Below are positions 1,390 to 34,542 of a stretch of DNA of 50,021 nucleotides, piece by piece. Location: contig JANYDH010000018.1 of the NCBI GenBank assembly GCA_025359865.1, positions 1 to 50,021 on the forward strand, given 5' to 3'. The DNA is from Actinomycetes bacterium (GTDB taxonomy: Bacteria; Actinomycetota; Acidimicrobiia; Acidimicrobiales; Ilumatobacteraceae). Each line of letters starts with the position of its first letter. Positions within the stretch are counted from its first letter, which is position 1. The translations under genes and the position numbers were made by a program. Under the pieces are notes generated by a model. The model did not search any database, was not told where the DNA came from, and saw nothing but the letters and a program-made list of their open reading frames with translations.

Positions 1390-2379
1390 ATGACGTCAAC
1401 ACTGATTCGACAAGGTCTGCAGATCCCCAACTTCACCTATCCCGGGGTGAGCGCTGGGGACTTGTTCGAACGAATCGCCGCTATCGCAACCACGGCCGAA
1501 GCGAGCGGGTTCGACAGCGTCTGGGTGATGGACCACTTCTACCAGTTGCCCATGCTCGGCGAGCCGAACCAGGAGATGTTCGAGGCCTACTCGCTGCTCA
1601 CCGCAATCGCAGCACGCACCTCCACCGTTCGGCTCGGCGCCATGGTCGGCGGTATGACCTACCGTAATCCGGCCTTCCTTGCAAAGACCGTCACCGGCCT
1701 CGATGTGATCTCTGGTGGCCGAGCGATTTGGGGCATCGGCGCCGGCTGGTTCGAGATGGAGCACGACGCATACGGATACGAGTTCGGTACGTTCACCGAC
1801 CGATTCGAAAAGCTCGAAGAGGGCTTACAGATCGTGAAGAGCATGTTCGTCAACGACACCACTACGTTCGACGGCAAGTGGTTCCATGTGACCGATGCGA
1901 TGAACGTGCCCAAGCCGGTACAAGCAGGCGGCCCCCCGGTGCTCATCGGCGGCAGCGGCGAGAAGAAGACGCTGCGGATGGTGGCTCAGTACGCCGACGC
2001 ATGCAACGTGTTCGGTGAGCCCAGCGCTGTCCGCCATCTGATGGAAGTGCTCGACGGCCATTGTGACCGCTTGGGCCGTGATCCGAAGACGATCTGTCGC
2101 ACCCGACTCGCCTCGCTCGTCGTCGGTCGCACCATGGAAGAGGCGCACGCAAAGATCGCAGGGCGCTTCGGTGGAATGAGCATCGACGACCTTCCCGCCG
2201 ACATGCGCGCACGCGTACAGGCGATGTTCATCATGGGCGATGCGCCCGCGGTACAACAGCAGGTGCAGGAGTTGCTCGACACCGGTCTCGACGGCCTGGT
2301 GTTCAACATGCCCGATGCTCACGACCTCGAAGCTGTCGCGCTCGCCGGCGAGGTGCTGCGCCCGGTGCTTGGAACGTAG
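1390..2379 (+). CDS. F420-dependent LLM-class oxidoreductase
   Basis: A 329-residue TIM-barrel flavin/F420 oxidoreductase of the bacterial luciferase superfamily. It probably transfers hydride between coenzyme F420 and an unknown substrate in the cytoplasm. Family signs are GFDSVWVMDHF in the N-terminal third, then TSTVRLGAMVGGMTYRNPAFLAK, SGGRAIWGIGAGW and, near the middle, PVLIGGSGEKKTLR, which lines the cofactor site in relatives. Length is typical of the TIGR03560-like branch. The ATG is supported by a -10 box 6 nt upstream. The next gene, a molybdopterin oxidoreductase, begins 27 nt downstream but has its own leaderless promoter signature. Substrate is unknown; choice of F420 over FMN is inferred from the subfamily. 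Confidence 0.88.
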   Translation: MTSTLIRQGLQIPNFTYPGVSAGDLFERIAAIATTAEASGFDSVWVMDHFYQLPMLGEPNQEMFEAYSLLTAIAARTSTVRLGAMVGGMTYRNPAFLAKTVTGLDVISGGRAIWGIGAGWFEMEHDAYGYEFGTFTDRFEKLEEGLQIVKSMFVNDTTTFDGKWFHVTDAMNVPKPVQAGGPPVLIGGSGEKKTLRMVAQYADACNVFGEPSAVRHLMEVLDGHCDRLGRDPKTICRTRLASLVVGRTMEEAHAKIAGRFGGMSIDDLPADMRARVQAMFIMGDAPAVQQQVQELLDTGLDGLVFNMPDAHDLEAVALAGEVLRPVLGT

Positions 2380-2402
2380 CGGTCGTAGCGGTCGTAGCAT
2401 TG
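2376..2402 (+). promoter_or_regulatory. 9-bp triplet repeat carrying a leaderless -10 box
   Basis: Three head-to-tail 9-mers (GTAGCGGTC, GTAGCGGTC, GTAGCATTG) span the LLM stop codon and the intergenic gap. The last holds TAGCAT at 2395-2400, exactly 6 nt before the ATG at 2407, the leaderless spacing seen elsewhere in the window. Confidence 0.45.
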
Positions 2403-2406
2403 CGAG

Positions 2407-4527
2407 ATGACCGCCCTCGACGACCTACCGACCACGCGGATCGTGCACGGGAGCTGTCACCACGATTGCCCAGACAGTTGTGGCTGGCTCGTCACCGTCG
2501 AAGAACGCGACGACAGCGACCAAGACGACAGCGAACGCGACGACACTGCGAGCGGCAGTGTTGCTGTGCAGCTGCGGGGCAACCCAGCTCATCCGTACAG
2601 CGCTGGCGAGTTGTGCCCCAAGGTGAACAGGTTCCTCGACCGTGTGTACAGCCCTGAGCGGGTCACCACACCGATGCGCCGAGTCGGGGCCAAAGGCGAG
2701 GGGCAGTTCGAGCCGATTACGTGGGACGAAGCACTCGCCACCATCGCGAGCCGGCTGCAGACGGTGATCGACACCAGCGGGCCCGAGGCGATCATGCCAT
2801 ACAGCAATGCCGGTAATCAGAGTGTGCTCGCGCTGATGTACTCGGAGCGATTCTGGAACCGGTTGGGGGGCACGCGGTTGGTACGCGCGTTGTGCGGCAC
2901 GACGGTCGGTGCTGGGGTGCAGATGACCAACGGCACCACCCGTGGCCTCGATCCACAGGAGTTGCGGCACTCCAAGCTGATCATTCTGTGGGCCACCAAC
3001 ACTCGGCTGACCAACCGTCATCTCTGGCCGACCATCGAAGCCGCCATGGCCGATGGAGCACGCCTGATCGTCATCGACCCGATCCGCACCATCACGGCCG
3101 ACTATGCCGACGAGTTCATCCAGCCTCTTCCGGGCACCGACATCGCGCTGATGTTGGCGATGATGAACGTGTTGATCGCTGAAGACCTGATCGATCACGC
3201 ATGGGTCGCCGCACACACGCTCGGCTTCGAAGAACTCGCCGCTCACGTCGCCGAGTGGACTCCAGAACGTGCCTCCCAGATCACCGGTGTCGACGCCTCG
3301 GTCATCACCCAACTTGCTCGCGCTTACGGCACCACCCGCCCAGTCGCGATCCGAACGCTCATCGGTGCCGAGCATCACGAAAACGGCGCGATGTTCTTCC
3401 GCACCATGGCATGCCTGCCGGCACTGGTCGGCGCGTGGCAAGACCGCGGTGGCGGCCTGGCCCGCAGCATCGGGGTGTGGTCGGAGGAACTCATCGACTA
3501 TGGCGCCCTCACCCAACCACAGCTGCTGGGCGACCGGTCACCACGGTGGCTCAACATGAGCCGGCTCGGCGAGGCGCTCACCGACCCCACACTTGATCCG
3601 CCTGTACAGGCCCTGATCGTGTGGGGTGCCAACCCGATGGTCGTCACGCCCAATGCCGAACTGATCCGCCGTGGACTCGAACGAGACGATCTGTTCACCG
3701 TCGTCCATGAGCAGTTCATCACCGACACGGCCCGCTACGCCGACATCGTGCTGCCAGCAACCACTCAGATCGAAGCCACCGACGTGGTCACCTCGTGGGG
3801 CCACCTCTACCTCGGATGGAACGAGGCGGCGATCGCGCCCGTTGGCCAGTGCGTCAGTAACAGCGAACTCCATCGTCGGCTTGCGTCGGCGATGGGCTTT
3901 ACCGAACCGGAACTCTTCGAGGACGATCTCGCCGTGCTCAAAGCTGCGCTGCCCACAGTAGATCTCGATGCGCTCCGACGCGACGGGTTCATGCGCGTGC
4001 CCTACCCGCACGACGGTCGCCCATTCGGTGACGGCGTGTTTCCCACACGGTCGGGCAGGGTCGAGTTCATCAGCGAGACGTTGGTTTCGCTCGGCCAACC
4101 GGCGCTACCGACCTTCGTACCTCCGCACGAGTCGTTGGGTGGCGATCACGAACTGGCTCATCGGTTCCCGTTCCAACTCCTGACCCCGAAGCGCCACACG
4201 AGGTTCCTCAATTCCAGCTATTCACATCTCCCAAAGCACGGACCGTTGGAGGATGGGCCGTTCGTCGAGATCTGCCCATCCGACGCGGTCATCCTCGGCG
4301 TCACCGATGGCGACTGCGTGCAAGTGCGCAACGACCGCGCATTGCTGCGGCTGCCGGTACGAATCAGCACGCGACTCCGGCCTGGGGTCGTCGCGATTCC
4401 GTGGGGATGGTGGCAGCACCAACACATCGATGGTCGCGCCGCAAACTCGCTGACGAACGACACACTGACCGACTGGGGCGGAGGCGTTGCCTTCAGCGAT
4501 ACCCTCGTCGCCATTGAAACGACCTGA
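2407..4527 (+). CDS. Molybdopterin (bis-MGD) oxidoreductase, DMSO reductase family
   Basis: A 706-residue catalytic subunit that carries a molybdenum-bis-MGD cofactor and one [4Fe-4S] cluster. The cluster ligands are C17, C21, C25 and C70 (CX3CX3C then C). The insert between C25 and C70 is unusually acidic (many DDS/DD pairs, residues 35-46). The central part contains the family's ITWDEAL motif, the LIVIDPIRT Rossmann strand and VWGANPMV. The C-terminal cofactor-capping barrel begins near LLTPKRHTRFLNSSYSH. No Tat signal is seen, so it is likely cytoplasmic and may pass electrons to a soluble partner. It follows the LLM oxidoreductase by 27 nt. No dedicated Fe-S or membrane subunit is adjacent. 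The substrate cannot be told from sequence. Confidence 0.9.
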   Translation: MTALDDLPTTRIVHGSCHHDCPDSCGWLVTVEERDDSDQDDSERDDTASGSVAVQLRGNPAHPYSAGELCPKVNRFLDRVYSPERVTTPMRRVGAKGEGQFEPITWDEALATIASRLQTVIDTSGPEAIMPYSNAGNQSVLALMYSERFWNRLGGTRLVRALCGTTVGAGVQMTNGTTRGLDPQELRHSKLIILWATNTRLTNRHLWPTIEAAMADGARLIVIDPIRTITADYADEFIQPLPGTDIALMLAMMNVLIAEDLIDHAWVAAHTLGFEELAAHVAEWTPERASQITGVDASVITQLARAYGTTRPVAIRTLIGAEHHENGAMFFRTMACLPALVGAWQDRGGGLARSIGVWSEELIDYGALTQPQLLGDRSPRWLNMSRLGEALTDPTLDPPVQALIVWGANPMVVTPNAELIRRGLERDDLFTVVHEQFITDTARYADIVLPATTQIEATDVVTSWGHLYLGWNEAAIAPVGQCVSNSELHRRLASAMGFTEPELFEDDLAVLKAALPTVDLDALRRDGFMRVPYPHDGRPFGDGVFPTRSGRVEFISETLVSLGQPALPTFVPPHESLGGDHELAHRFPFQLLTPKRHTRFLNSSYSHLPKHGPLEDGPFVEICPSDAVILGVTDGDCVQVRNDRALLRLPVRISTRLRPGVVAIPWGWWQHQHIDGRAANSLTNDTLTDWGGGVAFSDTLVAIETT

Positions 4528-12343: not shown

Positions 12344-12835
12344 CTACGACACGGCACCCGGTGACCGGGCCCACATCAACCCGGCGTCGAAGCTGAGCGT
12401 GTAGTCGGGAACGAACTCGATGACCACCCGGTGGGGCGAATCGAGAAAGGACTGAAACGTGGCTGCGGCCTTGGCATCGTCTGGTCGCAGCGCATGCGAG
12501 AACTCCGGGTAGAACCAGTCTTTGGTGGCACGGTCGTCGTGAACTATGCACGAACCTTTGTAGGTGACGGTCTTGCCGCCGCCCATCCGTGAGCCGGTGC
12601 TGTTGATACACAGCGAGGCTCTCGGGAAGCGGCGGATGGCCGAAATCCGGGCCCGACGCTCGGCCGCAGTCAGCCAGAACTTTCCGTTCTTTGGCAGGTA
12701 CGACATGACCACACCGAATGCTTCCCCGGCAACGTTGGTCCACATGAACACGCACTCGCGTTGGGTGTCGACCAGTTGTTGCTCGAGTTCGGCAGTGAGC
12801 GCGCACTCGGTGAGATCCTCGTAGTCATCGGCCAT
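12344..12835 (-). CDS. Pyridoxamine 5'-phosphate oxidase-like (FMN split-barrel) protein
   Basis: A 163-residue protein with the split-barrel fold of the PPOX/F420-dependent reductase superfamily. CVFMWTNVAGEAFGVVMSYL forms the first strands. FWLTAAERRARISAIRRFPRASLCIN is the usual strand-helix-strand, in which Arg residues bind the flavin or F420 phosphate, and VTYKGSCIVHDD follows. Actinobacterial relatives of this length commonly use FMN or F420 to reduce or oxidise unknown small molecules. A TACCTT box 6 nt upstream of the ATG supports the start and a leaderless transcript. It is a single gene, divergent in position from the lipoprotein promoter region but on the same strand. Confidence 0.75.
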   Translation of the reverse strand: MADDYEDLTECALTAELEQQLVDTQRECVFMWTNVAGEAFGVVMSYLPKNGKFWLTAAERRARISAIRRFPRASLCINSTGSRMGGGKTVTYKGSCIVHDDRATKDWFYPEFSHALRPDDAKAAATFQSFLDSPHRVVIEFVPDYTLSFDAGLMWARSPGAVS

Positions 12836-12841
12836 GAACGG

Positions 12842-12847
12842 AAGGTA
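12842..12847 (-). promoter_or_regulatory. -10 box (TACCTT) for the PPOX-like gene
   Basis: Minus-strand TACCTT lies 6 nt before the ATG at 12835, with no ribosome site. Same leaderless spacing as at 1378, 2395 and 34450. Confidence 0.45.
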
Positions 12848-12888
12848 GCACGTCGCCCCTACAAAATCTACTACCGGTAAATTTCTGC

Positions 12889-13953
12889 TCAGGTGACGGG
12901 GTCGAGACCCATTGCGCTGCCGGCGTTGAGGTCGTCGACCGCAGTGAACGTGCGACGCACCAGTGCGTCGAACAACGCCGCGCCGCGCTCGTTTGCCGGG
13001 TTGATCGTGAGCAGACTTGCCCCGAACGACACGGCGTAGAACATTAGACCCTCCACATAGCCGCGCCGAACGGTGTCGAGCGTGACAGCGTCGGCGGGGA
13101 CTCCGGCGGCGTGCAACCCGGTGACGTATCGCTCGATCAATGCATCCTCATGCTCGCGCCGCATCTCGGTGGTGAGGTTGTTGGCGCAGAAGTAGACGAG
13201 GTCGGCCTGACCAGGAGCACGCATCGACATCTGCCAATCGATCACCGCCACGCTGCCATCATCGAGGAAGAACAAGTTGTCGAGCCGGAAGTCGCCGTGG
13301 GTGATCGTGACAGGCTCGTCGAAGTGCCCTGCGATCCACTCGGGGATGCCTTCGACGAACTGCTCGCACCACCGCAGGCAACGCTCGGGGAGTTCGTTGC
13401 CGTACCGCTCGAGGAACAGCGGCCAACCAATCGCAAAGGTGTCACCGAGCGACAGGAGCGACGGATCGTCGAGACCCGGCAGCCAGTCCCATTCACGCAG
13501 GTTCGGGTGCTCGAACCACGCGGCATGATGACGTGCGATCACGTCGATCGATCGCTCGGCTTGGTCGAGCGTAGCGCCGGCAACGTGGTCGCCCGGCTTT
13601 GCCGGCGCCAGGTCTTCCAGCACCAGACACGGGGGCTCAGCGATGTTGACGAACGCCCGAGGCACCCGAATGTTGAGTAGCGGCGCCACATCTCGGTAGA
13701 AGCAATGCTCACGTTCCCAGACCCGCATCGTCTGGCCGATGAACTGCCCGCCGGGATCAGCGGTCGGCAGTTTGACGATGACCGAAGCGGGCGCGGATGG
13801 GTCAGGAGACGTCAACGTCACCCGTGCCAACAACCCCATGAACCCCTCGCCGGCGGCAATCGGGTTGACCTCGATGGCGTCGATCGGAACGCCCAACACC
13901 TCGGCCAACCAGTCGACAGTGACTTCATCCAACATTCGCGGAGTCTCGCTCAT
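12889..13953 (-). CDS. Aminoglycoside phosphotransferase (APH)/ecdysteroid kinase-like protein
   Basis: A 354-residue kinase-fold protein starting MSETPRML. VIVKLPT holds the nucleotide-site Lys, LEDLAP is the hinge, HGDFRLDNLFF the catalytic loop (Asp of HGD, Asn five residues later), and VIDWQMSMRAPGQADLVYF the DFG-like Mg site. Such actinobacterial proteins phosphorylate small molecules, often next to lipid or xenobiotic catabolism genes; antibiotic resistance is not implied. I prefer the ATG at 13953 over 13965 because TATGGT lies 7 nt upstream and overlaps the earlier ATG. A TetR gene ends 37 bp or so upstream on the same strand. Confidence 0.82.
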   Translation of the reverse strand: MSETPRMLDEVTVDWLAEVLGVPIDAIEVNPIAAGEGFMGLLARVTLTSPDPSAPASVIVKLPTADPGGQFIGQTMRVWEREHCFYRDVAPLLNIRVPRAFVNIAEPPCLVLEDLAPAKPGDHVAGATLDQAERSIDVIARHHAAWFEHPNLREWDWLPGLDDPSLLSLGDTFAIGWPLFLERYGNELPERCLRWCEQFVEGIPEWIAGHFDEPVTITHGDFRLDNLFFLDDGSVAVIDWQMSMRAPGQADLVYFCANNLTTEMRREHEDALIERYVTGLHAAGVPADAVTLDTVRRGYVEGLMFYAVSFGASLLTINPANERGAALFDALVRRTFTAVDDLNAGSAMGLDPVT

Positions 13954-13960
13954 CGGCGCG

Positions 13961-13966
13961 ACCATA
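13961..13966 (-). promoter_or_regulatory. -10 box (TATGGT) for the APH-like gene
   Basis: Minus-strand TATGGT lies 7 nt before the ATG at 13953. It overlaps the alternative upstream ATG, which argues for the shorter start. Confidence 0.4.
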
Positions 13967-14002
13967 CTTGCGACGCAAAGCCGGATCGACGGTCGGACGC
14001 AA

Positions 14003-14608
14003 TTAGGGCCCGGCGAGGCCCGACCACAACAACTCGGCGACCTGTTCGGCGAGTAGCTCTGCCGGCCGATCCATCTCGGTGATCCACCACAGCGAGACGA
14101 GGTGCAACATCCCGATCACCGCGTACGCCCATGGTACCGCGACCGCTGGATCAAGGCCTTGGTTGGTTCGCCACGCCGCTAGCTGCTGGGCCATCGGCGT
14201 GGTGGAACGCTCTGCAAGGTACAGCGTGCGCCTTGGAGTGTCGGCGGCGGTGCCACCGGTGACATAGAGGAACAGGTCGCGATGCTCGGCCAACGTGGAC
14301 AGGTTCGCTTCCACGAACGCGGTCAACATCGCCCGCCCGTAGGCAAGGTCTCCTATTGCGGCACCCGCTGCTATGACCAACCGGGCGGCAAGCCGACGCG
14401 AGAGCGCGTCGGCGAGATCGGTCCGCCCGCCGACGCGGGCATAGACGATCGGTTTCGTCACCCCGGCTTCGAGTGCAATTGCATCGAGTGAGACCCCTGC
14501 GCCGTCGCGGCGGATGACCCGTTCGGCCGCGTCGAGCACCAGTCCGCGGTCGACCACGCGCCGTCCCCCCGACGGACGACCGGGACGACGACCAACGACA
14601 ACAGTCAC
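14003..14608 (-). CDS. TetR-family transcriptional regulator
   Basis: A 201-residue repressor, probably starting at GTG 14608 (VTVVVGRRPGRPSG). The N-terminal helix-turn-helix reads VLDAAERVIRRDGAGVSLDAIALEAGVTKPIVYARVGGRTDLADALSRRLAARL, a clear TetR DNA-binding domain. The C-terminal half is the ligand and dimer domain. The open frame extends far upstream, but that part has no TetR character. It is divergent from the LLM operon at 14844; the shared region holds five tandem 12-bp repeats. It may control that operon, itself or the APH-like gene just downstream. Confidence 0.85.
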   Translation of the reverse strand: MTVVVGRRPGRPSGGRRVVDRGLVLDAAERVIRRDGAGVSLDAIALEAGVTKPIVYARVGGRTDLADALSRRLAARLVIAAGAAIGDLAYGRAMLTAFVEANLSTLAEHRDLFLYVTGGTAADTPRRTLYLAERSTTPMAQQLAAWRTNQGLDPAVAVPWAYAVIGMLHLVSLWWITEMDRPAELLAEQVAELLWSGLAGP

Positions 14609-14767
14609 CCGATGAGTGTGCCTGCCGTCAGGAGTGATGCAACCATTGACAGTCAGGTCCCGTCCGGTCGCCGGTGGATCCGGTCGGCCAACTCTCACCC
14701 AAGCCCGACGGTGAGCAATACTTACCCACCGTAACTTTGGTATCGATCGATAGACGATCCACCTGGC

Positions 14768-14827
14768 ATGCACCCACGAATGCACCCACGCATGCACCCA
14801 CGAATGAACCCACGAATGAACCCACGA
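14768..14827 (+). repeat. Five 12-bp tandem repeats in the TetR/LLM divergent region
   Basis: Five head-to-tail units of ATGCACCCACGA (the last two have ATGAACCCACGA, the second ends in C). The array ends 16 bp before the LLM start and lies 160 bp from the TetR start. The period is close to one helical turn, so bound proteins would line up on one face of the DNA. Confidence 0.75.
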
Positions 14828-14843
14828 TGGAGGAAGACCCGGC

Positions 14844-15716
14844 ATGAAATTCGGTTTGGCATTTGCGAGCAGCATCGGTATCGAAGGCGACGAAGCACTC
14901 GACATCTGTCGCCGCGCCGAGGCCGTTGGTTTCGAGTCGGTATGGGGTGGTGAGCACGTTGTACTGCCAACGACGATCGAGTCCCCGTACCCGTACACCG
15001 CCGATGGCAAGATTCCGGCCGCACCCGACACGCCGATCCCCGACCCGTTGATCTGGTTGGCGTTCGTCGCCGCTGCAGCGCCGACACTGCGACTCGGCAC
15101 GTGCATCCTCATCGTGCCCCAGCGCAATCCGTTGGTGTTGGCCAAGGAGCTCGCGACGCTCGACCGCCTGTCGGGCGGACGCGTCGAACTCGGCCTCGGT
15201 GTCGGCTGGATGCGCGAAGAGTTCGATGCGCTCGGCGTTCCGTGGGAACACCGTGGCGCGCGCAACGACGAATACGTCGCCGCGATGCGCGCACTGTGGG
15301 CCGGACCCCACGCAGAGTTTCACGGCGACTACGTCGACTTCGCGCCCGTTACCTGCAGCCCTCGCCCGGTGCAGGCAAGCATCCCGATCCTCGTCGGCGG
15401 CGATACCCCGGCAGCGCTACGCAGAGCCGTGCGAATTGCCGACGGCTACTTCCCCGGCGAGGGTGACGCCACTCGCCTCGGGAGCCTCATCTCCGAGCTG
15501 CGCATCGCATCGGAACAGTTCGGACGCAATCCCGATGAGATCGAGATCAACGCGATGTTCGGGGCACAGATGGCCGATCCCATCGCCGGAGCGGAGCAAC
15601 TGCGCGAGCTCGGTGTCGGGCGGGCGATGATCCCAGCGTTCTTCTTTGCCGGACCGGGCGGACTCGACCGCCTCAGCGAATTCGGGGAGCGGGTCATCCC
15701 GGCAGGCGGCCGCTGA
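14844..15716 (+). CDS. F420-dependent LLM-class oxidoreductase, first gene of a redox operon
   Basis: A 290-residue TIM-barrel protein of the TIGR03619-like F420 branch. Signatures are MKFGLAFASS, GFESVWGGEHVVLP, TLRLGTCILIVPQRNPLVLAKELATLDRLSGGRVELGLGVGW and IPILVGGDTPAALRRAVRIADGYFP. A good ribosome site (GGAGG) sits 8-12 nt before the ATG. The stop overlaps the next start (TGATG at 15713-15717), so the following swivel protein is translationally coupled. It presumably reduces or oxidises an intermediate of the pathway encoded by the four genes after it. Substrate unknown. Confidence 0.9.
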   Translation: MKFGLAFASSIGIEGDEALDICRRAEAVGFESVWGGEHVVLPTTIESPYPYTADGKIPAAPDTPIPDPLIWLAFVAAAAPTLRLGTCILIVPQRNPLVLAKELATLDRLSGGRVELGLGVGWMREEFDALGVPWEHRGARNDEYVAAMRALWAGPHAEFHGDYVDFAPVTCSPRPVQASIPILVGGDTPAALRRAVRIADGYFPGEGDATRLGSLISELRIASEQFGRNPDEIEINAMFGAQMADPIAGAEQLRELGVGRAMIPAFFFAGPGGLDRLSEFGERVIPAGGR

Positions 15717-17437
15717 TGAAGGACCGCTGGATCACGGACTGGCCGACCAGCCAACGGTTTCCGCACTACACGCGGGCCAACGCCGGCGAGGTGTTGGCCG
15801 ACCCAGTCAGCCCACTCGGCTGGTCGTTCGGCTGGGACGGCGGCATCATCGCGGGATACAAAGCCGGACTGATTCGCTGTGGCGCGTACGAAGACAGCGA
15901 CTTCGACGCTGACCACCCCGAATCGGTGGCGTGCTTCGGTGGCTACCTGTACATCAACCTGTCGGCAATCCGGATGCAGGGTGCGCGTAACCCTGCTGCC
16001 ACGGTCGAGATCCTCGACACAGCATTCTTCGGCGACCACCCTGATGTCCCGCCATACGTGGCCCACCCGAACGACGACAAGCCGCACCTGCTTCCAGCGA
16101 TCGCGGCTCATACCGCATGGGTGCTCGGCGGCACCGGCTGGCCCGAACTCGCCGACGACAAGGCTGCGGCCGAGGCCTTGCGACAGAGCCGTGGAGATCT
16201 CGGCCGACTCACCGATGTCGAACTTGTTGCACGGGCGCGCACCGTGCAAGCGCAGTTGCCCCACCTGTTCTCACAACACGTGGTTTCGGGTACCAGCGCC
16301 GCCGTGGCGCCAGGCCTGTTGGGCGTAGTCGCAGTCGCGCTCGACGAACCGGGCTTGCCGATGACCTTGCTGTCAAGCATCGGCGCTGTCGACTCTGCCG
16401 ACGCGAACTACGCGCTGTGGGATGTCTCGCGCATCGTTCGCGACGATCGGGCTCTCACCGCCGCATTCGACGCGGGGCTCGACGACGTGCTCGCTCGCTG
16501 CACATCACCACAGTTCCTTGCGGCGTGGGACGGGTTCATCTACGAGTTCGGCTCACGCGGCAGAGATGAATGGGACCTTGGCTCACCGACCTGGGAGACG
16601 CACCCTCGGCTCGCGCTTGGCGCGCTCGACCGAGTGCGATTGCAGGCCGACTCCGAATCCCCCCGGCTGCGCAACGCCGCTCGGGCCGATGCACGAGACG
16701 CGTTGATCACGAGCGCTCGGCTACGTCTTGCGGGCAACCCCGAGGTGCTGGGCCTCCTCGAAGCCGGCCTCACTGCGAGCGCGATGATGGCTCACCGTGA
16801 ACGCACGAAGACCACGATCGTGCGAGTGCTGCACGAGGCGCGGATGGCATTTCGCGAAGTGAGCAGGCGACACGGGGATGTGCAGTTGGTTTTCCAGTTG
16901 CTCGACAGCGAGCTCGATGCGTACGTGGCCGACCCTGGTTCGTTCACACAGCCCCTCACTGCCCGACGTGGCGAATGGCTCGAACTGTTCGATCTGCAAC
17001 CACCGTTCATCATCGCCAACGCCAGCGTGCCGCCGCTCGGGCAATGGCTTCGCCGAGATGCTGCTGCCGCCGATCATGTCGTCGTCGCGGCCATCGTGGG
17101 TGACGTACTGTCGGGTGTGTCGGGTTCACCGGGCAGCGCCCGCGGTATCGCCCGTGTCGTGCTCGATCCGGGCGACCCACGCGATCTGCAGCCTGGCGAC
17201 GTTCTCGTCGCTCCGTGTACCGACCCGAGTTGGACGCCGCTGTTCATGTCGGCCAGCGCAGTCGTGGTCGATGTCGGCGGACAGATCAGCCATGCGGTGA
17301 TCGTCAGCCGCGAACTGGGTCTGCCCTGCGTGGTGTCGGTCACCGACGGCACCCGGCGGATTCCCGATGGTGCGCTCATCCACGTCGATGGCACCGCCGG
17401 CACCATCACCATCATCCAGACAGGAAACCCGACATGA
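15716..17437 (+). CDS. PEP-utilising-enzyme mobile (phosphohistidine swivel) domain protein
   Basis: A 573-residue protein. The last 110 residues form the swivelling phosphohistidine domain: GSARGIARVVLDPGDPRDLQPGDVLVAPCTDPSW, then GGQISHAVIVSRELGLPCVV, where His is the phosphorylated residue in PPDK, PEP synthase and rifampin phosphotransferase. The rest (PHYTRANAGEVLADPVSPLGWS, FGGYLYINLSAIRMQGAR) resembles the substrate-side part of rifampin-phosphotransferase-like proteins. I see no ATP-grasp domain, so a phosphoryl donor or partner must come from elsewhere, or the protein has another job. It overlaps the LLM stop by one base and the SDR start by ATGA. It sits in the middle of a redox operon, which is an odd place for a phosphotransfer protein. 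Confidence 0.8.
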   Translation: MKDRWITDWPTSQRFPHYTRANAGEVLADPVSPLGWSFGWDGGIIAGYKAGLIRCGAYEDSDFDADHPESVACFGGYLYINLSAIRMQGARNPAATVEILDTAFFGDHPDVPPYVAHPNDDKPHLLPAIAAHTAWVLGGTGWPELADDKAAAEALRQSRGDLGRLTDVELVARARTVQAQLPHLFSQHVVSGTSAAVAPGLLGVVAVALDEPGLPMTLLSSIGAVDSADANYALWDVSRIVRDDRALTAAFDAGLDDVLARCTSPQFLAAWDGFIYEFGSRGRDEWDLGSPTWETHPRLALGALDRVRLQADSESPRLRNAARADARDALITSARLRLAGNPEVLGLLEAGLTASAMMAHRERTKTTIVRVLHEARMAFREVSRRHGDVQLVFQLLDSELDAYVADPGSFTQPLTARRGEWLELFDLQPPFIIANASVPPLGQWLRRDAAAADHVVVAAIVGDVLSGVSGSPGSARGIARVVLDPGDPRDLQPGDVLVAPCTDPSWTPLFMSASAVVVDVGGQISHAVIVSRELGLPCVVSVTDGTRRIPDGALIHVDGTAGTITIIQTGNPT

Positions 17438-18237
17438 ATCTCGCGACCAGCCCTGAAATACAAGCCGACTATCCCGCGCCGAGCGAGTTGTTCAGCCTGC
17501 GCGGCGACGTCGCTGTGGTCACCGGAGGCGGGCGCGGCATCGGCGAAGGCATTGCCCGCACCCTTGCCAGTGCCGGCGCACAGGTAGTTGTGGCCGCACG
17601 TCGCGTCGATGAAGTCGAGGCGGTTGCAGCCAGGATCCGCGAGGACGGCGGCGAGGCCATCGCCGTTGCCACCGATGTCACCGACGACGACGCGGTTGAC
17701 CAACTCGCGCAAGCTGCGATCGCAGCGTTCGGCAAGGTGTCGATCTGGGTGAATAACGCTGGCGGTTCCGCAGCGCGGATGCCGATGACCCAACTCAGCC
17801 GCCAACAGTGGGACGACTGCATCGCGCTCAACCAGACCGCTGTATGGGTCGGCATCACTACTGCGGCGAAGTACATGGAGACCGGATCGATCATCAACGT
17901 GTCGTCCGGTGCGGGCTTCGGTCCGGTGCCAGGCAGCGGCCATTACGCAGCAGCAAAGGCCGCAGTCAATTCGCTCACCCAGACCGCGTCGGCCGAACTC
18001 GCGCCGCGGATCCGCGTCAACGGCATCGCGCCCGGCGCCGTACCAACCGAGATCTTCATGAAGGCACTCGGGCTCGAAGACGACGACGATCTTGCCGCAG
18101 CGGAGACTGCCTGGAACATTCCGATGGGGCGCTTCGGTACACCGCTCGACATGGGCGCCGCCGTACTGTTCTTGTGCTCGCCGGCAGCGAAGTGGATCAC
18201 CGGTGAGATGATTCGGGTCCGAGGGGGCGTCAAGTAA
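17434..18237 (+). CDS. Short-chain dehydrogenase/reductase (SDR)
   Basis: A 267-residue classical SDR. The cofactor motif is T30-GGGRGIG, NNAG follows, and the active site has S158 (NVSSG), Y171 and K175 (HYAAAK). R in AARRVDE after strand 2 suggests NADP preference. The C-terminus ends with the usual GEMIRVRGG. The start at 17434 gives an ATGA overlap with the upstream stop and drops a long upstream extension in the same frame that belongs to another reading frame's gene. Probably oxidises an alcohol or reduces a ketone in the pathway. The molybdopterin enzyme follows after 2 nt. Confidence 0.9.
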   Translation: MNLATSPEIQADYPAPSELFSLRGDVAVVTGGGRGIGEGIARTLASAGAQVVVAARRVDEVEAVAARIREDGGEAIAVATDVTDDDAVDQLAQAAIAAFGKVSIWVNNAGGSAARMPMTQLSRQQWDDCIALNQTAVWVGITTAAKYMETGSIINVSSGAGFGPVPGSGHYAAAKAAVNSLTQTASAELAPRIRVNGIAPGAVPTEIFMKALGLEDDDDLAAAETAWNIPMGRFGTPLDMGAAVLFLCSPAAKWITGEMIRVRGGVK

Positions 18238-18239
18238 CC

Positions 18240-20462
18240 ATGATCGAAACACGTGAGACGTTCTGCCGATTCTGCCACGCAGCCTGTCCGATCGAGGTCG
18301 ACGTCGAGTTCAACGCTGGTGCGGTCACAGGCGCTGGCGCAGGCGCAGGCGCTCGCGTTGAAACAGCGGTCGCCGTGCGCGGCATCCCCGACGACCCGCT
18401 GTTCGAGGGGTACACGTGCATCAAGGGGCGCCAACTCGCGGATCAACATCACGCACCGGATCGACTGCGCGCGCCACTGCGCCGGGACAGCCATGGCACG
18501 TTCCAACCGACTACGTCAGGCGACGCCCTCGATGACATCGCCACGCGCATCGGCGAAATCATCGCCCGCTACGGGCCGCGCGCCGTGGCGAGCTATACCG
18601 GTACGGGAGCGTTTCAGAACTCGATCTCCATGCCGGCCACCGTTGCATTCCACGCCGGCATCGACTCACCGTCGTTCTACACGTCGATCACGATCGACCA
18701 ACCCGCACACCTCACCGCCCGCCTGCGAATGGGGGCATGGGAAGCAGGGTGGCAGAACTTCCGTGACGCCGACGTACTGATGGCGATCGGGTACAACCCG
18801 CTCGTGTCGTCGTATGCGCCGTCCGGCGGGCTGCAGGGCACGAACCCGTTCGTCACCCTCCGACGCGCCAAGGCTCGCGGAATGAAGCTGATCGTGATCG
18901 ATCCACGGCGCAGCGAACTGGCCACATCGGCCGATGTCTGGCTGCAAGTGAAACCTGGTGAAGACCCGACGCTGTTGGCCGGTCTCATCAACGTGATCCT
19001 CTCCGAGCGTCTCCACGACATCGACTTCTGCAACGAATGGGTCGCTCAACTGGGTGAGCTCACCGCTGCGGTCGCGTCGTTCACACCCGAGGTCGTGTCG
19101 GCGCGCTGCGAGGTCGATGCCGACCTGGTTGTCGAAGCGGCGCGTCTGTTTGCGGCCGGCCCTCGCGGTACAGCCGGGACGGGCACCGGGCCCAACATGG
19201 CTCCACACAGCACCTTGATGGAACACCTCGCGCTCACGCTCAACGCAATCTGCGGACGCGTCAACCGTGAGGGTGACCGTCTGGAGAGCGGCAGCTTCCT
19301 CAACCCTGGCGATACCCGCCGTGCCCAGGTGAGTGCACCCAGCGATCCGGCACCGGGAACCCCGCACCGGGTGAAGGGCCTCAAGGGAATGCCCGGCGAG
19401 ATGCTCACCAACGTGCTGGCCGAAGAGATCATGGAGCCCGGCGAGGGCAGGGTCCGGTGTCTCATCGTGTGCGGCGGTAACCCCGTGGTCGCCTTTCCGG
19501 ATCAGCACAAGACCATCGCCGCGATGCGCGATCTCGAGCTGCTGGTGGTGATCGACCACCGGATGACCGCCACGGCCGAACTGGCCCAGTATGTGCTGCC
19601 ACCGCGCCTCGAACTCGAGCGCGCCGATGTGCCAACGGTGATGGACCGTCGATTCGCTGCGCCCTATGTGAGCTACACGCCGGCGGTGCTGGTGCCCGAG
19701 GGCGACCTACTGTCGGAGTGGGAAGTCTTCGCCGGGATCGCGGCCCGACTCGGCACAAAAATGCCGCTGGCGGGCGGAGATCTTCCACTCGACGGCACTG
19801 CCAACGATGAGATGATGCTCGATCTCGCTTACGGAAATTCCCGAATGCCGATGGCTGAGATCCGGTCCAAGCGCAGCACCATCCAAGAACACCTGGCAAT
19901 CACGGTGATGGCCGCCACCCCCGGTCCACACGCCAGATTCGCCGTCGCACCACCCGATGTGATCGCTGAGCTCTCGGTTGTCTCCACCGAACAAACCGGT
20001 GCCGAGGTGATCGACGGGTTCGATCCCGATTCGTTCCCATTCCGGCTCATCAGCCGCCGGTTGAAGCACGTGCTCAACTCACTCGGTCGTGAACTTCCGG
20101 GCCTCGCCCGCGTGGGCACCACCAACGCCGCCTACATGCACCCCCATGACATGGCTGTGATTGGCGTGGAGACCGGTGACCTGATCGAGATCTCCTCACC
20201 ATCCGGGTCAATCATCGGGGTCGCAGAGTCGAGCGACACGATCAAACGCAACGTCGTGTCGATGGCCCACTCGTGGGGCGGCTCGGTCACCGACGAGCAC
20301 GTTCGCGAACATGGCAGCCCGACCAATCGGCTGTGTACCGTCGACAGCGGCTACGACCCGCTCAATGGGATGGCTGTCCAGAGCGCGATACCGGTCAGCA
20401 TCCGCCGTCACGAACCCGTCCAGCCGCAGCCGCAACCGGGCCGCCGGGTAGCTTCCCCCTAA
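18240..20462 (+). CDS. Molybdopterin oxidoreductase (DMSO reductase family), operon member
   Basis: A 740-residue bis-MGD enzyme. Cluster ligands are C9, C12, C16 and C60 (CX2CX3C then C). Between them is an Ala-Gly run (GAGAGAGAR, residues 31-39) from a 6-bp DNA repeat, probably a surface loop. The cofactor-binding stretches are LMAIGYNPLVSSYAPSGG, MKLIVIDPRRSELA, PNMAPHSTLMEHLALTLN, LIVCGGNPVVAFPD and the C-terminal barrel from FPFRLISRRLKHVLNS. No Tat signal is seen. It starts 2 nt after the SDR stop. Together with the gene at 2407 it is the second such enzyme in 20 kb, but from a different branch (CX2C versus CX3C spacing). Substrate unknown. Confidence 0.9.
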   Translation: MIETRETFCRFCHAACPIEVDVEFNAGAVTGAGAGAGARVETAVAVRGIPDDPLFEGYTCIKGRQLADQHHAPDRLRAPLRRDSHGTFQPTTSGDALDDIATRIGEIIARYGPRAVASYTGTGAFQNSISMPATVAFHAGIDSPSFYTSITIDQPAHLTARLRMGAWEAGWQNFRDADVLMAIGYNPLVSSYAPSGGLQGTNPFVTLRRAKARGMKLIVIDPRRSELATSADVWLQVKPGEDPTLLAGLINVILSERLHDIDFCNEWVAQLGELTAAVASFTPEVVSARCEVDADLVVEAARLFAAGPRGTAGTGTGPNMAPHSTLMEHLALTLNAICGRVNREGDRLESGSFLNPGDTRRAQVSAPSDPAPGTPHRVKGLKGMPGEMLTNVLAEEIMEPGEGRVRCLIVCGGNPVVAFPDQHKTIAAMRDLELLVVIDHRMTATAELAQYVLPPRLELERADVPTVMDRRFAAPYVSYTPAVLVPEGDLLSEWEVFAGIAARLGTKMPLAGGDLPLDGTANDEMMLDLAYGNSRMPMAEIRSKRSTIQEHLAITVMAATPGPHARFAVAPPDVIAELSVVSTEQTGAEVIDGFDPDSFPFRLISRRLKHVLNSLGRELPGLARVGTTNAAYMHPHDMAVIGVETGDLIEISSPSGSIIGVAESSDTIKRNVVSMAHSWGGSVTDEHVREHGSPTNRLCTVDSGYDPLNGMAVQSAIPVSIRRHEPVQPQPQPGRRVASP

Positions 20463-20481
20463 ACCGTCCAAGGAGACAGAC

Positions 20482-20829
20482 ATGATCATCATCGCCGGCA
20501 CCATCGATCTGGCCGACCCGTCCATGCGCGACGAGGTGCTGGCCGCCTCGATGCCCTTGCAAGCGGCCCCGCGCAACGAAGAGCCAGGCTGTGAGGCGTA
20601 CTGCTTCGCAGCCGACCCCGTGGTCGAAGGCCGGATCCAGGTGTACGAACTGTGGACCGACGAGCAGTCGCTCGCCGCCCACTTCAAGCATCCGAACTAC
20701 ATCAACATGGGTGCCTTGTTACGCGGTTCGGGCCTGAAGGGCGCCGACACGAGGAAGTTCCGCTGCGACCACGCGGAGCCCGTATACGACAACACGATGA
20801 CGCCACGCGCCGACTTCTTCAACGTCTGA
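20482..20829 (+). CDS. Antibiotic biosynthesis monooxygenase (ABM)-domain protein
   Basis: A 115-residue ferredoxin-like protein of the YgiN/ABM family, which oxidises quinols or aromatic intermediates without a cofactor, or acts as a small accessory enzyme. MIIIAGTIDLADPS, then EEPGCEAYCFAADPVVEGRIQVYELWTDEQSLAAHFKHPN is the family core. A strong ribosome site (AAGGAG) stands 7 nt before the ATG. It is the last gene of the 14.8-20.8 kb operon, 19 nt after the molybdopterin enzyme. The convergent PhyH gene ends 38 bp further on. Confidence 0.85.
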   Translation: MIIIAGTIDLADPSMRDEVLAASMPLQAAPRNEEPGCEAYCFAADPVVEGRIQVYELWTDEQSLAAHFKHPNYINMGALLRGSGLKGADTRKFRCDHAEPVYDNTMTPRADFFNV

Positions 20830-20866
20830 GCCGAAGCACTGCCGACAGTCGGCCGTCGTTGCCGAA

Positions 20867-21637
20867 TCAGACGGCTTCGTGGTTGGCGACCGAAGGTTTC
20901 TGACAGAGCCGACGCTGCTGGTCGGTCATCTCAGCGATCGTCTCAGGACGGCATGGCGGCTCACGGCCCCACGACACCGGACCGGGTGCGTATTTGTAGA
21001 GCAACGATCGACGCTCGTGTGCTCCAGCCCACGGCAGGGTGCCGTGCGTCAGTGCCTCGCAGAACACCACGAGATCACCGGCCATCATCGGTACCTCGGT
21101 GACCAGTTCATGGTCGAGACCGATGCCGGCGGGGAGTGGAAAGTTCCCTGTATGCGATCCGGGGACGCAACAGAACCCGCCACCACCTACTGGGTGGTCG
21201 ACGAGCGCCCACTGCACCACCATCAGGCCCGTACGAATGTGGCCCTGCTTGACGAGGTAGTACTGCGACGGGTCGAACGGGGTGCCACCGCCGTGGAGTG
21301 TCAGCCCACTCGTACCGGGTGCCATCACGATCCCGTAGGCATGGTCGAGTCGAACCTGCGCACCACACAATTCGCGGATCACATCAAGGATCGCAGGATC
21401 ATCGATGAGGTCGCGCATCAGACCCCCAGCATCGACGATGCGATCGAACCGCTGGGACTGGATCGATGTACCCGCCGGCGGCAACCGCAAGGCATCAACC
21501 TCAATCTGTAGACGTCGCAACTCGCCCTCGCTCAGCACGTTTCGCCGCACCACGTAGCCACGCACGTCAAACGTGTAACGCTCTTCGTCCGTCAACGGGC
21601 CGTGCACCACTGCCCCAGTCTGACCGAGATGGAACAC
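20867..21637 (-). CDS. Phytanoyl-CoA dioxygenase (PhyH)-family protein
   Basis: A 256-residue Fe(II)/2-oxoglutarate-type oxygenase. The family core is LTLHGGGTPFDPSQYY, WALVDHPVGGGGFCCVPGSHTGNFPLP, and FCEALTHGTLPW, which supplies the distal His. The HXD iron motif is read HGG here, so the carboxylate ligand is not in its standard place; I recall the same HGGGTPFD-like form in other bacterial members, so it may be family-typical. GTG 21637 is the only early start in frame. It begins 13 bp after the LysM lipoprotein gene and is probably cotranscribed. Substrate unknown. Confidence 0.8.
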   Translation of the reverse strand: MFHLGQTGAVVHGPLTDEERYTFDVRGYVVRRNVLSEGELRRLQIEVDALRLPPAGTSIQSQRFDRIVDAGGLMRDLIDDPAILDVIRELCGAQVRLDHAYGIVMAPGTSGLTLHGGGTPFDPSQYYLVKQGHIRTGLMVVQWALVDHPVGGGGFCCVPGSHTGNFPLPAGIGLDHELVTEVPMMAGDLVVFCEALTHGTLPWAGAHERRSLLYKYAPGPVSWGREPPCRPETIAEMTDQQRRLCQKPSVANHEAV

Positions 21638-32923: not shown

Positions 32924-34186
32924 CTACCCGAGTTCGTCGACACGCGCCGCTGCCCAACTGGAGATCTGGTCACGGATGGCGTCGGCGATGCGCTGTTCGT
33001 CGAAGGTGAGGTGAGACGCGCCCGCGGCATCCGCAAGCGCGTCGGGTAGGCGCTCGGCTAGCGCCGTGATGCGTGCGTGTGCCTCGTCGGATCCCAGGCC
33101 GAGCGAGCGGGCCATTCGTTCCCAGTGACGGCGTTGGATGAAAGAAGGGCGGTACTCGCCGCCGATCTTGTGCGCCATCCGGGCGTTGCGGGGGTGGTCG
33201 AGATGCGGAAGCGCGGACGCGATGTCGTAGAGCGGAGCCAGGCGCACCTGATGGCCACTCAGCAACAGCGAATAGTTCTTCGCGTGACCGTCTGTGGCCA
33301 GCACAAGCCAGTTGTAGACGAGGGCGTCGAAGAACCGGGCCACATCGCGGTCTCCGGCGACCTCGCGTATGAGTCGGCCGAGCTGTTCGGCGCGCGGACC
33401 CCCGTCGACTTCGTACTTTCGGTCGGGGTGGACGCTGAGCGCCTGGCACAGGTCTTCCTGATGGACCCGAACGACGGCACCGGAGTCGTCGACGATCCGG
33501 TCATAGCGTTCGACCACCAGCGCCCGCTCTGTTCCGAAGGTACGGATCGACGTCGTCGCAGCGATCAAGCCCGCGCGCCGAGCGGCAGTGAGGCAGAGAT
33601 GTTCGTTGACGTCGAAGTCATCGAGCCCGCCGATCGCAGGCTTCACGATGTGAGTGGTCGGCGTTGCACCGCAGGGAATTCCCCATCTGTCAGCTGACTG
33701 GTCGTAGAGGAGAGCGATCTTCGCTTGGGCACCCGCGAGGCTCCATCGGCCCTCTGGGTGCGGGCGCCACGTCGTTGTGTCGCGTCGCAGGTCACGCAGG
33801 AACTGAGCTACGTCATCGTCGATCAGCCACTCGACGTCGCCCGGCATTGACTCCTCGGGCGTTGCGTCCGGTGCGACATACTGAGCTGCTCCGGCGACAT
33901 CGCCGCCGACACCCCGCAGGAGTCCGGCGACATCGGTCGGCGAGCAACCGAACTCACGCGCCCAACGTTCGAGTACCCGGTCGTTGTCGGGCAACAGACC
34001 CCAAAGGTACGGGTGGACGGTTGCGTGCAGGTAGGGCGAGACTCGCAACGGCATCGACACCGACAGTGGCGTCGACGCCGGTCTGGCGGCGTAGTCGGGG
34101 TCGTAGGTCAACCGGAGGCTGCGCCTGTCTGCGGCGTCAAGCGTGCCGACGAGTTGTCCACCCATGTATACGGCCAGGTTGGTCAC
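32924..34186 (-). CDS. hipA: HipA-type serine/threonine kinase toxin
   Basis: A 420-residue HipA. The N-terminal subdomain (LAVYMGGQLVGTLDAADR, LSVSMPLR, LWGLLPDN) and C-terminal kinase (SLAGAQAKIALLY, THIVKPA, VERYDR) are complete. The catalytic loop is TDGHAKNYSLLL with Asp as base, and LAPLYDIASA supplies the Mg Asp. HipA phosphorylates a tRNA synthetase and halts growth. GTG 34186 is chosen because it overlaps the HipB stop as GTGA; the longer frame lies in HipB's territory. Ends about 20 bp from the integrase remnant, convergent to it. Confidence 0.92.
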   Translation of the reverse strand: MTNLAVYMGGQLVGTLDAADRRSLRLTYDPDYAARPASTPLSVSMPLRVSPYLHATVHPYLWGLLPDNDRVLERWAREFGCSPTDVAGLLRGVGGDVAGAAQYVAPDATPEESMPGDVEWLIDDDVAQFLRDLRRDTTTWRPHPEGRWSLAGAQAKIALLYDQSADRWGIPCGATPTTHIVKPAIGGLDDFDVNEHLCLTAARRAGLIAATTSIRTFGTERALVVERYDRIVDDSGAVVRVHQEDLCQALSVHPDRKYEVDGGPRAEQLGRLIREVAGDRDVARFFDALVYNWLVLATDGHAKNYSLLLSGHQVRLAPLYDIASALPHLDHPRNARMAHKIGGEYRPSFIQRRHWERMARSLGLGSDEAHARITALAERLPDALADAAGASHLTFDEQRIADAIRDQISSWAAARVDELG

Positions 34187-34443: not shown

Positions 34444-34449
34444 AATGTC

Positions 34450-34478
34450 AGCGTACGCATACATCAGGTCAATGTCAA
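34450..34478 (-). promoter_or_regulatory. Leaderless hipBA promoter
   Basis: Minus strand: -35 TTGACA (34473-34478), 17-bp spacer, -10 TACGCT (34450-34455), 6 nt, ATG at 34443. The spacer carries a GCGTACGC palindrome (34451-34458), a plausible HipB site. Confidence 0.7.
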
Positions 34479-34542
34479 CGATCGACGACATTTCGCACAG
34501 GTCCGCGAACGCTGACCTCATGAAGGTACATCGACCGTTACG

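What the first reader, a model, noticed from the sequence alone, without database searches (positions are those of the whole stretch)
14844..20829. Coupled redox operon with a stand-alone phosphohistidine swivel protein
LLM F420 enzyme, swivel protein, SDR, molybdopterin enzyme and ABM monooxygenase are joined by TGATG, ATGA and 2-19 nt gaps. A phosphotransfer domain lacking ATP-grasp inside a redox pathway is unexpected: it may activate a substrate by phosphorylation through an unknown donor, or be a non-catalytic scaffold. This is the best candidate here for an undescribed pathway.
Basis: partly seen in the sequence, partly recalled or inferred. Interest (0 to 1): 0.65.

Follow-up and report, generated by a model that had tools for sequence, protein, structure and literature searches.

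The report
Substrate-phosphorylating swivel kinase missing its ATP domain
A catabolic operon carries the substrate-binding and phosphate-carrying half of a kinase whose ATP-binding half is missing; gene neighbourhoods in other bacteria suggest that the missing phosphate source is a borrowed piece of the central-metabolism enzyme pyruvate phosphate dikinase.

Summary
The five genes and their tight spacing are real. The "swivel" protein is larger than stated: 573 aa, matching the rifampin-binding and phosphohistidine domains of rifampin phosphotransferase, with no hidden ATP-grasp. Its histidine is invariant in 90 of 90 relatives, so a scaffold role is unlikely. Similar ATP-grasp-less subunits are known (HpeH, CreH, PpsA), with an ATP-grasp gene next door (5 of 5 loci read). 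Here there is none; the genome has only an unlinked pyruvate phosphate dikinase (PPDK). In relatives the swivel gene travels with PPDK derivatives: half-PPDKs (ATP-grasp plus His, like VadK), or PPDKs with a decayed ATP-grasp and an intact PEP domain. The decayed form is in 13 of 16 swivel-bearing and 0 of 135 swivel-free genomes of one family; the other three have a half-PPDK-sized ATP-grasp frame 7 kb from the swivel. I propose that PPDK-type proteins, charged by ATP or PEP, phosphorylate these kinases in trans; for the window's organism that is inference. The five-gene order is not conserved: swivel-SDR-MopB recurs in another genus, but two congeners lack the swivel at the syntenic locus. 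Verdict: new variant of a known kind.

The parts
14844..15716 (+). F420-dependent LLM-class oxidoreductase (TIGR03619, Rv2161c subfamily)
   Evidence: TIGR03619 260.6 bits vs cut-off 166.9
15716..17437 (+). ATP-grasp-less substrate kinase: RPH-like substrate-binding domain (about 1-445) + phosphohistidine swivel (about 462-568); reactive His526, R361/E362/K365 aligned with the R-E-x-x-K of RPH-like proteins
17189..17401 (+). PF00391 phosphohistidine (PEP-utilizers) domain inside the swivel gene
17434..18237 (+). SDR-family dehydrogenase (PF13561), 4-nt overlap with the swivel gene
18240..20462 (+). molybdopterin oxidoreductase (MopB), one [4Fe-4S] motif, by alignment no Cys/Sec at the usual Mo-ligand place but a conserved IDQP
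20482..20829 (+). ABM-fold small protein (PF03992); not conserved with the swivel
14003..14557 (-). TetR regulator, divergent; conserved in congener L149
12889..13965 (-). EcKL/APH-type kinase; conserved in congeners, not enriched near swivels in general
12344..12835 (-). PPOX-class, putative F420-dependent protein (TIGR03618 below cut-off)
20867..21637 (-). PhyH-type dioxygenase, convergent

Best explanation
The 573-aa protein is the substrate subunit of a small-molecule dikinase: its RPH-like domain binds a hydroxylated catabolic substrate and His526 on the swivel domain passes a phosphoryl group to it. It has no ATP-grasp domain and no dedicated ATP-grasp gene because its histidine is charged in trans by a PPDK-type protein: a half-PPDK (ATP-grasp+His), a PPDK with a decayed ATP-grasp that can use only PEP, or, in the window's organism, the ordinary full-length PPDK. 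The phosphorylated intermediate is then processed by the co-encoded F420/SDR/molybdopterin enzymes. Shown here: domain make-up, residue conservation, no ATP-grasp gene of this class found beside it or elsewhere in the draft genome except PPDK, genomic linkage to PPDK derivatives in other taxa. Inferred: phosphoryl flow and its direction, that full-length PPDK serves in this genome, the order of steps and the substrate class.
For: Fold: whole protein = RPH 314-867. Catalysis: His526 90/90, E362 90/90, R361 88/90, K365 87/90; these align with R-E-x-x-K in the RPH-like L210; RPH-Lm Arg666 and Glu667 Ala mutants lose RIF inactivation (PMC4844700, passages). Donor: PF01326 absent from the window genome except in PPDK. 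Half-PPDK beside swivels in Dehalococcoidia L106, L108, L132, a bin L123 and on an R. pyridinivorans plasmid L146. All 5 plasmids of 72,556 with a full-length swivel of this family also carry a PPDK-type ATP-grasp match at E 1e-30 (84 plasmids have one; p about 2e-15). Decayed-grasp PPDK (38.6% identical to the window genome's PPDK, PEP domain PF02896 7e-67, no PF01326): in 13 of 151 genomes, all 13 among the 16 with swivels, 7.0-14.8 kb from the nearest swivel. Prediction met: the 3 swivel genomes without it (G156, G213, G232) each have a PF01326 frame of 513-611 aa 7.1-7.2 kb from the swivel. On plasmids, 8 of 13 PPDK-type proteins without a recognised PEP domain have a separate swivel ORF within 8-10 kb; 0 of 4 with one. 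Literature: VadK, a PPDK-half, autophosphorylates on His422 (PMC13400623, section read); rv1127c and rv2047c (epimerase + PEP-utilizing domain) are both required under high mycobactin (PMC7058343, passages).
Against: In the window's own family no half- or decayed PPDK was seen beside swivels; PPDK is near-universal there (PF01326 in 89 of 101 genomes), so its co-occurrence proves nothing. The 13 linked genomes are related and share one conserved cluster, so they are not 13 events; 10 of the 13 also have some PF01326 protein elsewhere. On four of the five swivel plasmids the PPDK-type gene is 24 to about 745 kb from the swivel. In complete Tepidiforma flava the half-PPDK-sized PF01326 frame (755 aa, 1.20 Mb) lies far from the swivel (2.53 Mb). 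His-to-His transfer between two swivels, or docking of a foreign swivel on PPDK, is not shown for these proteins. The swivel is dispensable at the syntenic locus of two congeners. The half-versus-full contrast on plasmids is weak (p = 0.053), some of the eight swivel ORFs are short or weak matches (L249, L251, L256, L257), and L253, L257 and L261 have frames of 685-873 aa, so they may be divergent full-length enzymes. The VadK authors propose a regulatory role on the methylcitrate cycle, not this one.
Confidence: 0.5

Rival explanations
1. Transphosphorylase: the swivel protein takes phosphate from an already phosphorylated metabolite and moves it to another substrate, needing no ATP-grasp or PPDK.
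For: HpeH alone moves phosphate from 4-phosphoacetophenone to acetovanillone at 2.7 nmol/min/mg, and the Thauera homologue does likewise (PMC12167813, passages). No ATP-grasp partner found beside the window gene. An EcKL/APH kinase lies nearby in the window.
Against: Linkage to PPDK derivatives in other taxa would be unexplained. EcKL-type kinases are not enriched near swivels (7 of 90 vs 3 of 40). The HpeH rate alone is far below the ATP-driven rate (0.69 U/mg for 4-hydroxyacetophenone, same paper).
Confidence: 0.2
2. A conventional two-component dikinase whose ATP-grasp subunit is encoded elsewhere and was missed because it is divergent or lies in an assembly gap.
For: Assembly is 96.6% complete in 219 contigs. 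A canonical-looking pair exists in the same family: L212 has a 355-aa ATP-grasp protein followed by a PpsA-type gene that runs off the contig.
Against: PF01326 over 101 family genomes shows, in the rows listed, almost only PPDK and fused RPH-like proteins (list truncated). Four swivel-bearing genomes have no PF01326 match at all (G102, G104, G108, G212). An ATP-grasp profile finds only PPDK-type proteins in 79 swivel loci (flanks up to about 8-12 kb, shorter at contig ends).
Confidence: 0.12
3. Reverse flow: the swivel collects phosphate from a phosphorylated catabolic intermediate and PPDK-type proteins bank it as PEP or ATP.
For: PPDK-type reactions are reversible (established knowledge); decayed-grasp PPDK keeps only the PEP/pyruvate side.
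Against: Nothing in the sequence sets direction; characterised relatives (RPH, HpeHI, CreHI, PpsAB) phosphorylate the substrate.
Confidence: 0.1
4. Non-catalytic scaffold.
For: Dispensable at the syntenic locus in two congeners; the T/S-x-x-G-G loop before the histidine is changed (V518 in 86/90, Ala for the second Gly in 68/90).
Against: Invariant His, Glu and Arg residues across 90 proteins. Fused relatives L209 and L214 that keep an ATP-grasp also have Val at this place, so the change is not a mark of loss.
Confidence: 0.05

Closest known systems
Two-component phenolic dikinases HpeHI, CreHI, PpsAB (HpeH/CreH/PpsA subunit)
   Same: Substrate-binding + phosphohistidine swivel on one polypeptide, ATP-grasp not on it; catabolic setting with SDR/P450 in the Cre-type loci; His before a conserved I/V-x-x-RE motif.
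   Different: ATP-grasp gene adjacent in the 5 loci read (of 10 hits), not here. Profile alignment covers only 169-568, at 26% identity. R361 and K365 are Val and Asn in the CreH-type protein; the T/S-x-x-GG loop is altered here.
Rifampin phosphotransferase (RPH)
   Same: Fold over the full length, R-E-x-x-K motif.
   Different: RPH carries its own ATP-grasp; identity about 21%; no sign that the substrate is an antibiotic.
VadK (Rv1127c) and half-PPDKs
   Same: Proposed donor partner, not homologue of the whole protein; both have a phosphohistidine domain.
   Different: VadK has the ATP-grasp and no small-molecule-binding domain is described for it; PF01326 found no half-PPDK in the window genome.
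Rv2047c / PRK05865-type proteins (SDR-epimerase fused to the same C-terminal part)
   Same: ATP-grasp-less swivel next to, there fused with, an SDR (PRK05865 match 8.8e-31 over 354-568).
   Different: Fused epimerase; different pathway (pks12 operon, PMC7058343, passages). That PRK05865 is Rv2047c-type is recalled.
NCBIfam PRK08296 family (568-633 aa, 'hypothetical protein')
   Same: Similar size; its name in NCBIfam gives no function.
   Different: Matches only over about 461-571 and far below the curated cut-offs.

Membership tests
Two-component small-molecule dikinase (HpeHI/CreHI/PpsAB) | Substrate-binding + His swivel subunit without ATP-grasp | tested here: met
Two-component small-molecule dikinase (HpeHI/CreHI/PpsAB) | Separate stand-alone ATP-grasp subunit, encoded alongside | tested here: not met
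   only PPDK in the draft genome; 79 swivel loci: only PPDK-type matches
Two-component small-molecule dikinase (HpeHI/CreHI/PpsAB) | Conserved catalytic histidine | tested here: met
   90 of 90
Two-component small-molecule dikinase (HpeHI/CreHI/PpsAB) | T/S-x-x-G-G-x-x-x-H loop (as given in PMC12167813) | tested here: not met
   V518 in 86/90, G522 is Ala in 68/90 (window protein itself has V and GG)
Two-component small-molecule dikinase (HpeHI/CreHI/PpsAB) | ATP-dependent phosphorylation of a phenol | not testable with these tools
   needs an assay
Rifampin phosphotransferase | RIF-binding-domain fold + swivel | tested here: met
   Z 29.1 over 495 residues
Rifampin phosphotransferase | N-terminal ATP-grasp in the same chain | tested here: not met
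Rifampin phosphotransferase | Match above the curated RPH model cut-off | tested here: not met
   NF041857 111.4 bits vs 999
PPDK-charged swivel kinase (proposed here) | PPDK-type donor genetically linked to the swivel | tested here: inconclusive
   met in Mycobacteriales, Dehalococcoidia and some plasmid relatives; in the window genome PPDK is unlinked
PPDK-charged swivel kinase (proposed here) | Phosphoryl transfer from PPDK-type His/ATP/PEP to the swivel His | not testable with these tools
   needs an assay

The most novel reading that the evidence does not exclude
A phosphorelay for small-molecule catabolism, built like the sugar PTS: PPDK-derived proteins charged by ATP (half-PPDK, VadK-type) or by PEP alone (decayed-grasp PPDK, an Enzyme I analogue) feed phosphate to a set of substrate-specific RPH-like swivel kinases that have no nucleotide site. 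The window's operon is one such kinase tied to an F420/SDR/molybdopterin pathway. The same logic would give VadK a small-molecule or lipid kinase partner such as Rv2047c.
Probability: 0.4. Interest if true: 0.85.

Novelty: new variant of a known kind. Interest (0 to 1): 0.62.

Why it matters
If the donor assignment is right, it explains two sets of orphan proteins at once: ATP-grasp-less swivel kinases, and PPDK fragments such as VadK whose phospho-acceptor is open. It would add a PEP- or ATP-charged histidine relay to catabolism of lipids/aromatics in Actinobacteria and beyond, and it is directly testable with two purified proteins.

Tried and rejected
Hidden ATP-grasp in the protein: rejected. 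Five-gene operon as a conserved unit: rejected. EcKL/APH kinase as partner: 7 of 90 swivel loci vs 3 of 40 controls, not enriched; likewise histidine phosphatases 4 vs 3, ACAD 8 vs 3, Rieske 10 vs 4, ABM 1 vs 2, AMP-binding 16 vs 4, CaiB 12 vs 2, PPOX 8 vs 1, PhyH 2 vs 0 and the extra C-terminal domain 9 vs 2. Uncorrected p under 0.05 in the same test (19 families tried, relatedness ignored): SDR 53 vs 10, LLM 33 vs 6, P450 22 vs 2, ECH 23 vs 2, MopB 15 vs 1, ABC1 kinase 11 vs 0, inositol-phosphatase type 9 vs 0, W21-type oxidoreductase 8 vs 0. The MopB figure is inflated: 4 of the 90 swivels (L155, L156, L160 twice) come from loci fetched for their MopB; without them 12 of 86 (p not recomputed). 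The 'PPDKh' row of that test (9 vs 2) mixes in proteins with only the extra C-terminal domain and was dropped; one search replaces it. Genes in fetched loci were called by my own simple script; it missed at least one real swivel, C190:15071-16795, so the neighbour counts are approximate.

V518 as a mark of lost ATP use: rejected, because fused ATP-grasp proteins L209 and L214 have Val there too. G065 and G097 as 'swivel genomes without PF01326': rejected, because their PPDK match stops at a contig end (L243, L244). (PpsB against three isolates) was empty, but the tool says an empty answer shows nothing; not used. G108 was not in the 151-genome set. Promoter/terminator scan of 14500-21000: 0 promoter-like sites, 2 terminator-like sites against 2.8 in shuffles. 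A paper search for such a cluster in Acidimicrobiia found none. VIA-align rows after RPH concern mostly the swivel domain. Not tested: whether M. smegmatis, which lacks VadK according to PMC13400623, has an Rv2047c relative.


Full report
WHAT IS THERE. Pfam supports each family, NCBIfam all but ABM. The window is contig C198 of a 4.99-Mb draft genome in 219 contigs, 96.6% complete. Its family is probably Ilumatobacteraceae: family member G051 has a contig of the same length (31,010) and swivel position as a record titled Ilumatobacteraceae.

THE SWIVEL PROTEIN. It is 573 aa. PF00391 covers 492-562; NCBIfam RPH, PRK06241 and PigC models match within about 216-569, all far below their cut-offs. 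An AlphaFold2 model from 50 sequences has mean pLDDT 92.2 and pTM 0.91. VIA-align puts residues 1-568 on RPH 314-867 (5fbt, Z 29.1, 495 residues, rmsd 3.6, 21% identity); after the six RPH entries the next rows cover the swivel domain. So the protein is RPH without its ATP-grasp. In 90 distinct full-length relatives, His526 and E362 are invariant, R361 is kept in 88 and K365 in 87. In an alignment with an RPH-like protein (L210) these fall on R-E-x-x-K; in RPH-Lm, Arg666 and Glu667 are essential for RIF inactivation (PMC4844700, passages read). The residue correspondence was matched by alignment, not by inspecting the structure.

KNOWN RELATIVES. ATP-grasp-less substrate subunits are known: HpeH, CreH and PpsA, each with an ATP-grasp partner (PMC12167813: abstract, passages and discussion read). 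Five loci of that type were read, of 10 hits, and all five have an adjacent 'PEP/pyruvate-binding' gene. The window family differs: profile alignment to that type covers 169-568 at 26% identity, and the loop before the histidine is changed (V518 86/90; second Gly is Ala in 68/90; Cys538 in 89/90 where CreH, PpsA and L210 have Ala). Fused proteins L209 and L214, which keep an ATP-grasp, share Val and Cys at those places, so these are clade marks rather than damage.

WHERE IS THE ATP-GRASP? In the window genome PF01326 rings only in PPDK on contig C31; that PPDK keeps its PEP domain. Across 101 genomes of the family, 51 have a match to the protein at E 1e-20 (some only to the swivel domain), and 89 have PF01326, in the rows shown nearly always in PPDK or in fused proteins of about 750-960 aa (the list was truncated). 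One stand-alone ATP-grasp gene was identified, in G014, followed by a PpsA-type gene. In 79 loci holding the swivels, an ATP-grasp profile found five genes, all PPDK-type, and none in 40 control loci; a sixth, in L108, a locus left out of the 79 as a near-duplicate, came up by similarity.

PPDK DERIVATIVES AS PARTNERS. In L106, L108, L123, L132 and L146 the partner is a half-PPDK: ATP-grasp plus its own His domain, no PEP domain; in L121 the locus ends inside a PPDK-type gene whose open frame is 782 aa. Three Rhodococcoides/Rhodococcus isolates (G102, G104, G108) have no PF01326 match anywhere, yet their swivel cluster holds an 847-aa PPDK homologue in which PF01326 is not recognised while PF02896 (PEP-binding) scores 7e-67. 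In the alignment the GGK and QTRVGKR stretches are lost and the PEP-side motifs are kept (their roles are recalled from PPDK work). In 151 genomes of G104's family, this protein (over 1500 bits) is in 13 and a swivel in 16; all 13 are among the 16, none among 135 others (Fisher p = 3e-16, not corrected for relatedness). Nearest distances are 7.0-14.8 kb in 13 of 13. Ten of the 13 also have some PF01326 protein; G102, G104 and G212 have none. I then predicted that the other three swivel genomes would have a half-PPDK; each has a PF01326 frame of 513-611 aa 7.1-7.2 kb from its swivel, and the third swivel of G238 has one of 503 aa at 7.2 kb. I did not read those four frames, so 'half' rests on frame length.

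PLASMIDS. Five of 72,556 plasmids carry a full-length swivel of this family; all five also carry a PPDK-type ATP-grasp match, which 84 plasmids have. On one it is 7 kb from the swivel; on the other four 24 to about 745 kb. Of 17 PPDK-type plasmid loci read, chosen by me from the 30 listed, 13 have no recognised PEP domain, and 8 of these have a separate ATP-grasp-less swivel ORF within 8-10 kb (L146, L247-L251, L256, L257; in L249, L251, L256 and L257 the ORF is short or the match weak). The five without are L246, L258 and L259, whose plasmids carry swivels elsewhere, and L253 and L261. All four with a PEP domain have none (p = 0.053). In Diaphorobacter the order is PEP-utilizing enzyme, about 200-aa protein, half-PPDK.

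LITERATURE LINK. The half-PPDK of M. tuberculosis, VadK (Rv1127c), autophosphorylates on His422 with ATP and Mg (PMC13400623, passages and sections 8, 17 and 18 read); the authors also note full-length PPDKs that lack critical kinase motifs in other mycobacteria, and that M. smegmatis lacks VadK. Rv2047c, an epimerase with a PEP-utilizing domain in an operon with pks12, and rv1127c are both required under high mycobactin (PMC7058343, passages). One paper in the library holds both locus names, and the VadK main text does not name Rv2047c. In the listings of searches I saw no paper joining PPDK derivatives to ATP-grasp-less swivel kinases; the library is open-access only.

THE OPERON. Swivel-SDR-MopB recurs at 73-81% identity in L048/L067, L049 and L068, and swivel-SDR in L069 and L122. 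In P450-LLM-SDR clusters (for example L051, L054-L059) a MopB 58-61% identical lies divergent from the swivel; the window's own genome has a second such pair on C190 (swivel 15071-16795, 56%; MopB 12812-14959, 61%). But congeners G018 and G053 have the syntenic locus without swivel or LLM (L148, L149). The swivel is therefore an exchangeable step in a family of redox clusters. The closest solved relatives of MopB are formate dehydrogenases, with acetylene hydratase also listed, but 13 of the 14 relatives printed beside it share the IDQP stretch where those enzymes have the Cys/Sec ligand (read by alignment), so a plain formate dehydrogenase is unlikely. Neighbours more frequent around swivels (SDR, LLM, P450, enoyl-CoA hydratase, uncorrected) point to catabolism of hydroxylated lipid-like or aromatic compounds; the substrate is unknown.

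MECHANISM AND CONFIDENCE. Most likely: a PPDK-type protein charges His526, the swivel phosphorylates a hydroxyl of the substrate, and the phosphate serves as handle or leaving group for the following redox steps, as in the p-cresol (Cre) pathway (recalled). I put 0.5 on PPDK-type charging as a whole; the role of full-length PPDK in the window's organism is the weakest link.

Noticed in passing
window 14768-14827: Five-copy 12-bp tandem repeat (ATGCACCCACGA) directly upstream of the LLM start, between the divergent TetR and the operon.
   Followed up: no
window 1390-4527: A second LLM + molybdopterin-enzyme pair (329 and 706 aa, 27 nt apart) in the same window.
   Followed up: no
L060:2623-7627, L062:6818-11908, L064:5902-10941: Three tandem swivel paralogues with an MFS transporter, CoA-transferase III and a divergent ABC1-type atypical kinase in three congeners; ABC1 kinases are near 11 of 90 swivels and 0 of 40 controls.
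   Followed up: partly
L229:3246-5789: PPDK homologue with decayed ATP-grasp and intact PEP-binding domain in Rhodococcoides fascians; 82-97% identical copies in 12 other genomes of 151.
   Followed up: partly
L247:6676-11476: Diaphorobacter plasmid operon: ATP-grasp-less PEP-utilizing enzyme, about 200-aa protein, half-PPDK. A similar-sized gene lies beside several half-PPDKs elsewhere; in L121 and L146 it resembles the C-terminal part of the 730-aa half-PPDKs.
   Followed up: partly
window 34183-34941 and 36350-36760: Two neighbouring ORFs with near-identical starts, looking like duplicated toxin-antitoxin PIN-type genes (the type is a guess from the letters).
   Followed up: no
L041:8098-11799: A 1233-aa eCIS-core-domain protein between two swivel genes on contig C190 of the same genome.
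   Followed up: no
L088, L097: Two records titled Bifidobacterium breve carry Acidimicrobiia-like swivel genes; probably misnamed bins.
   Followed up: no
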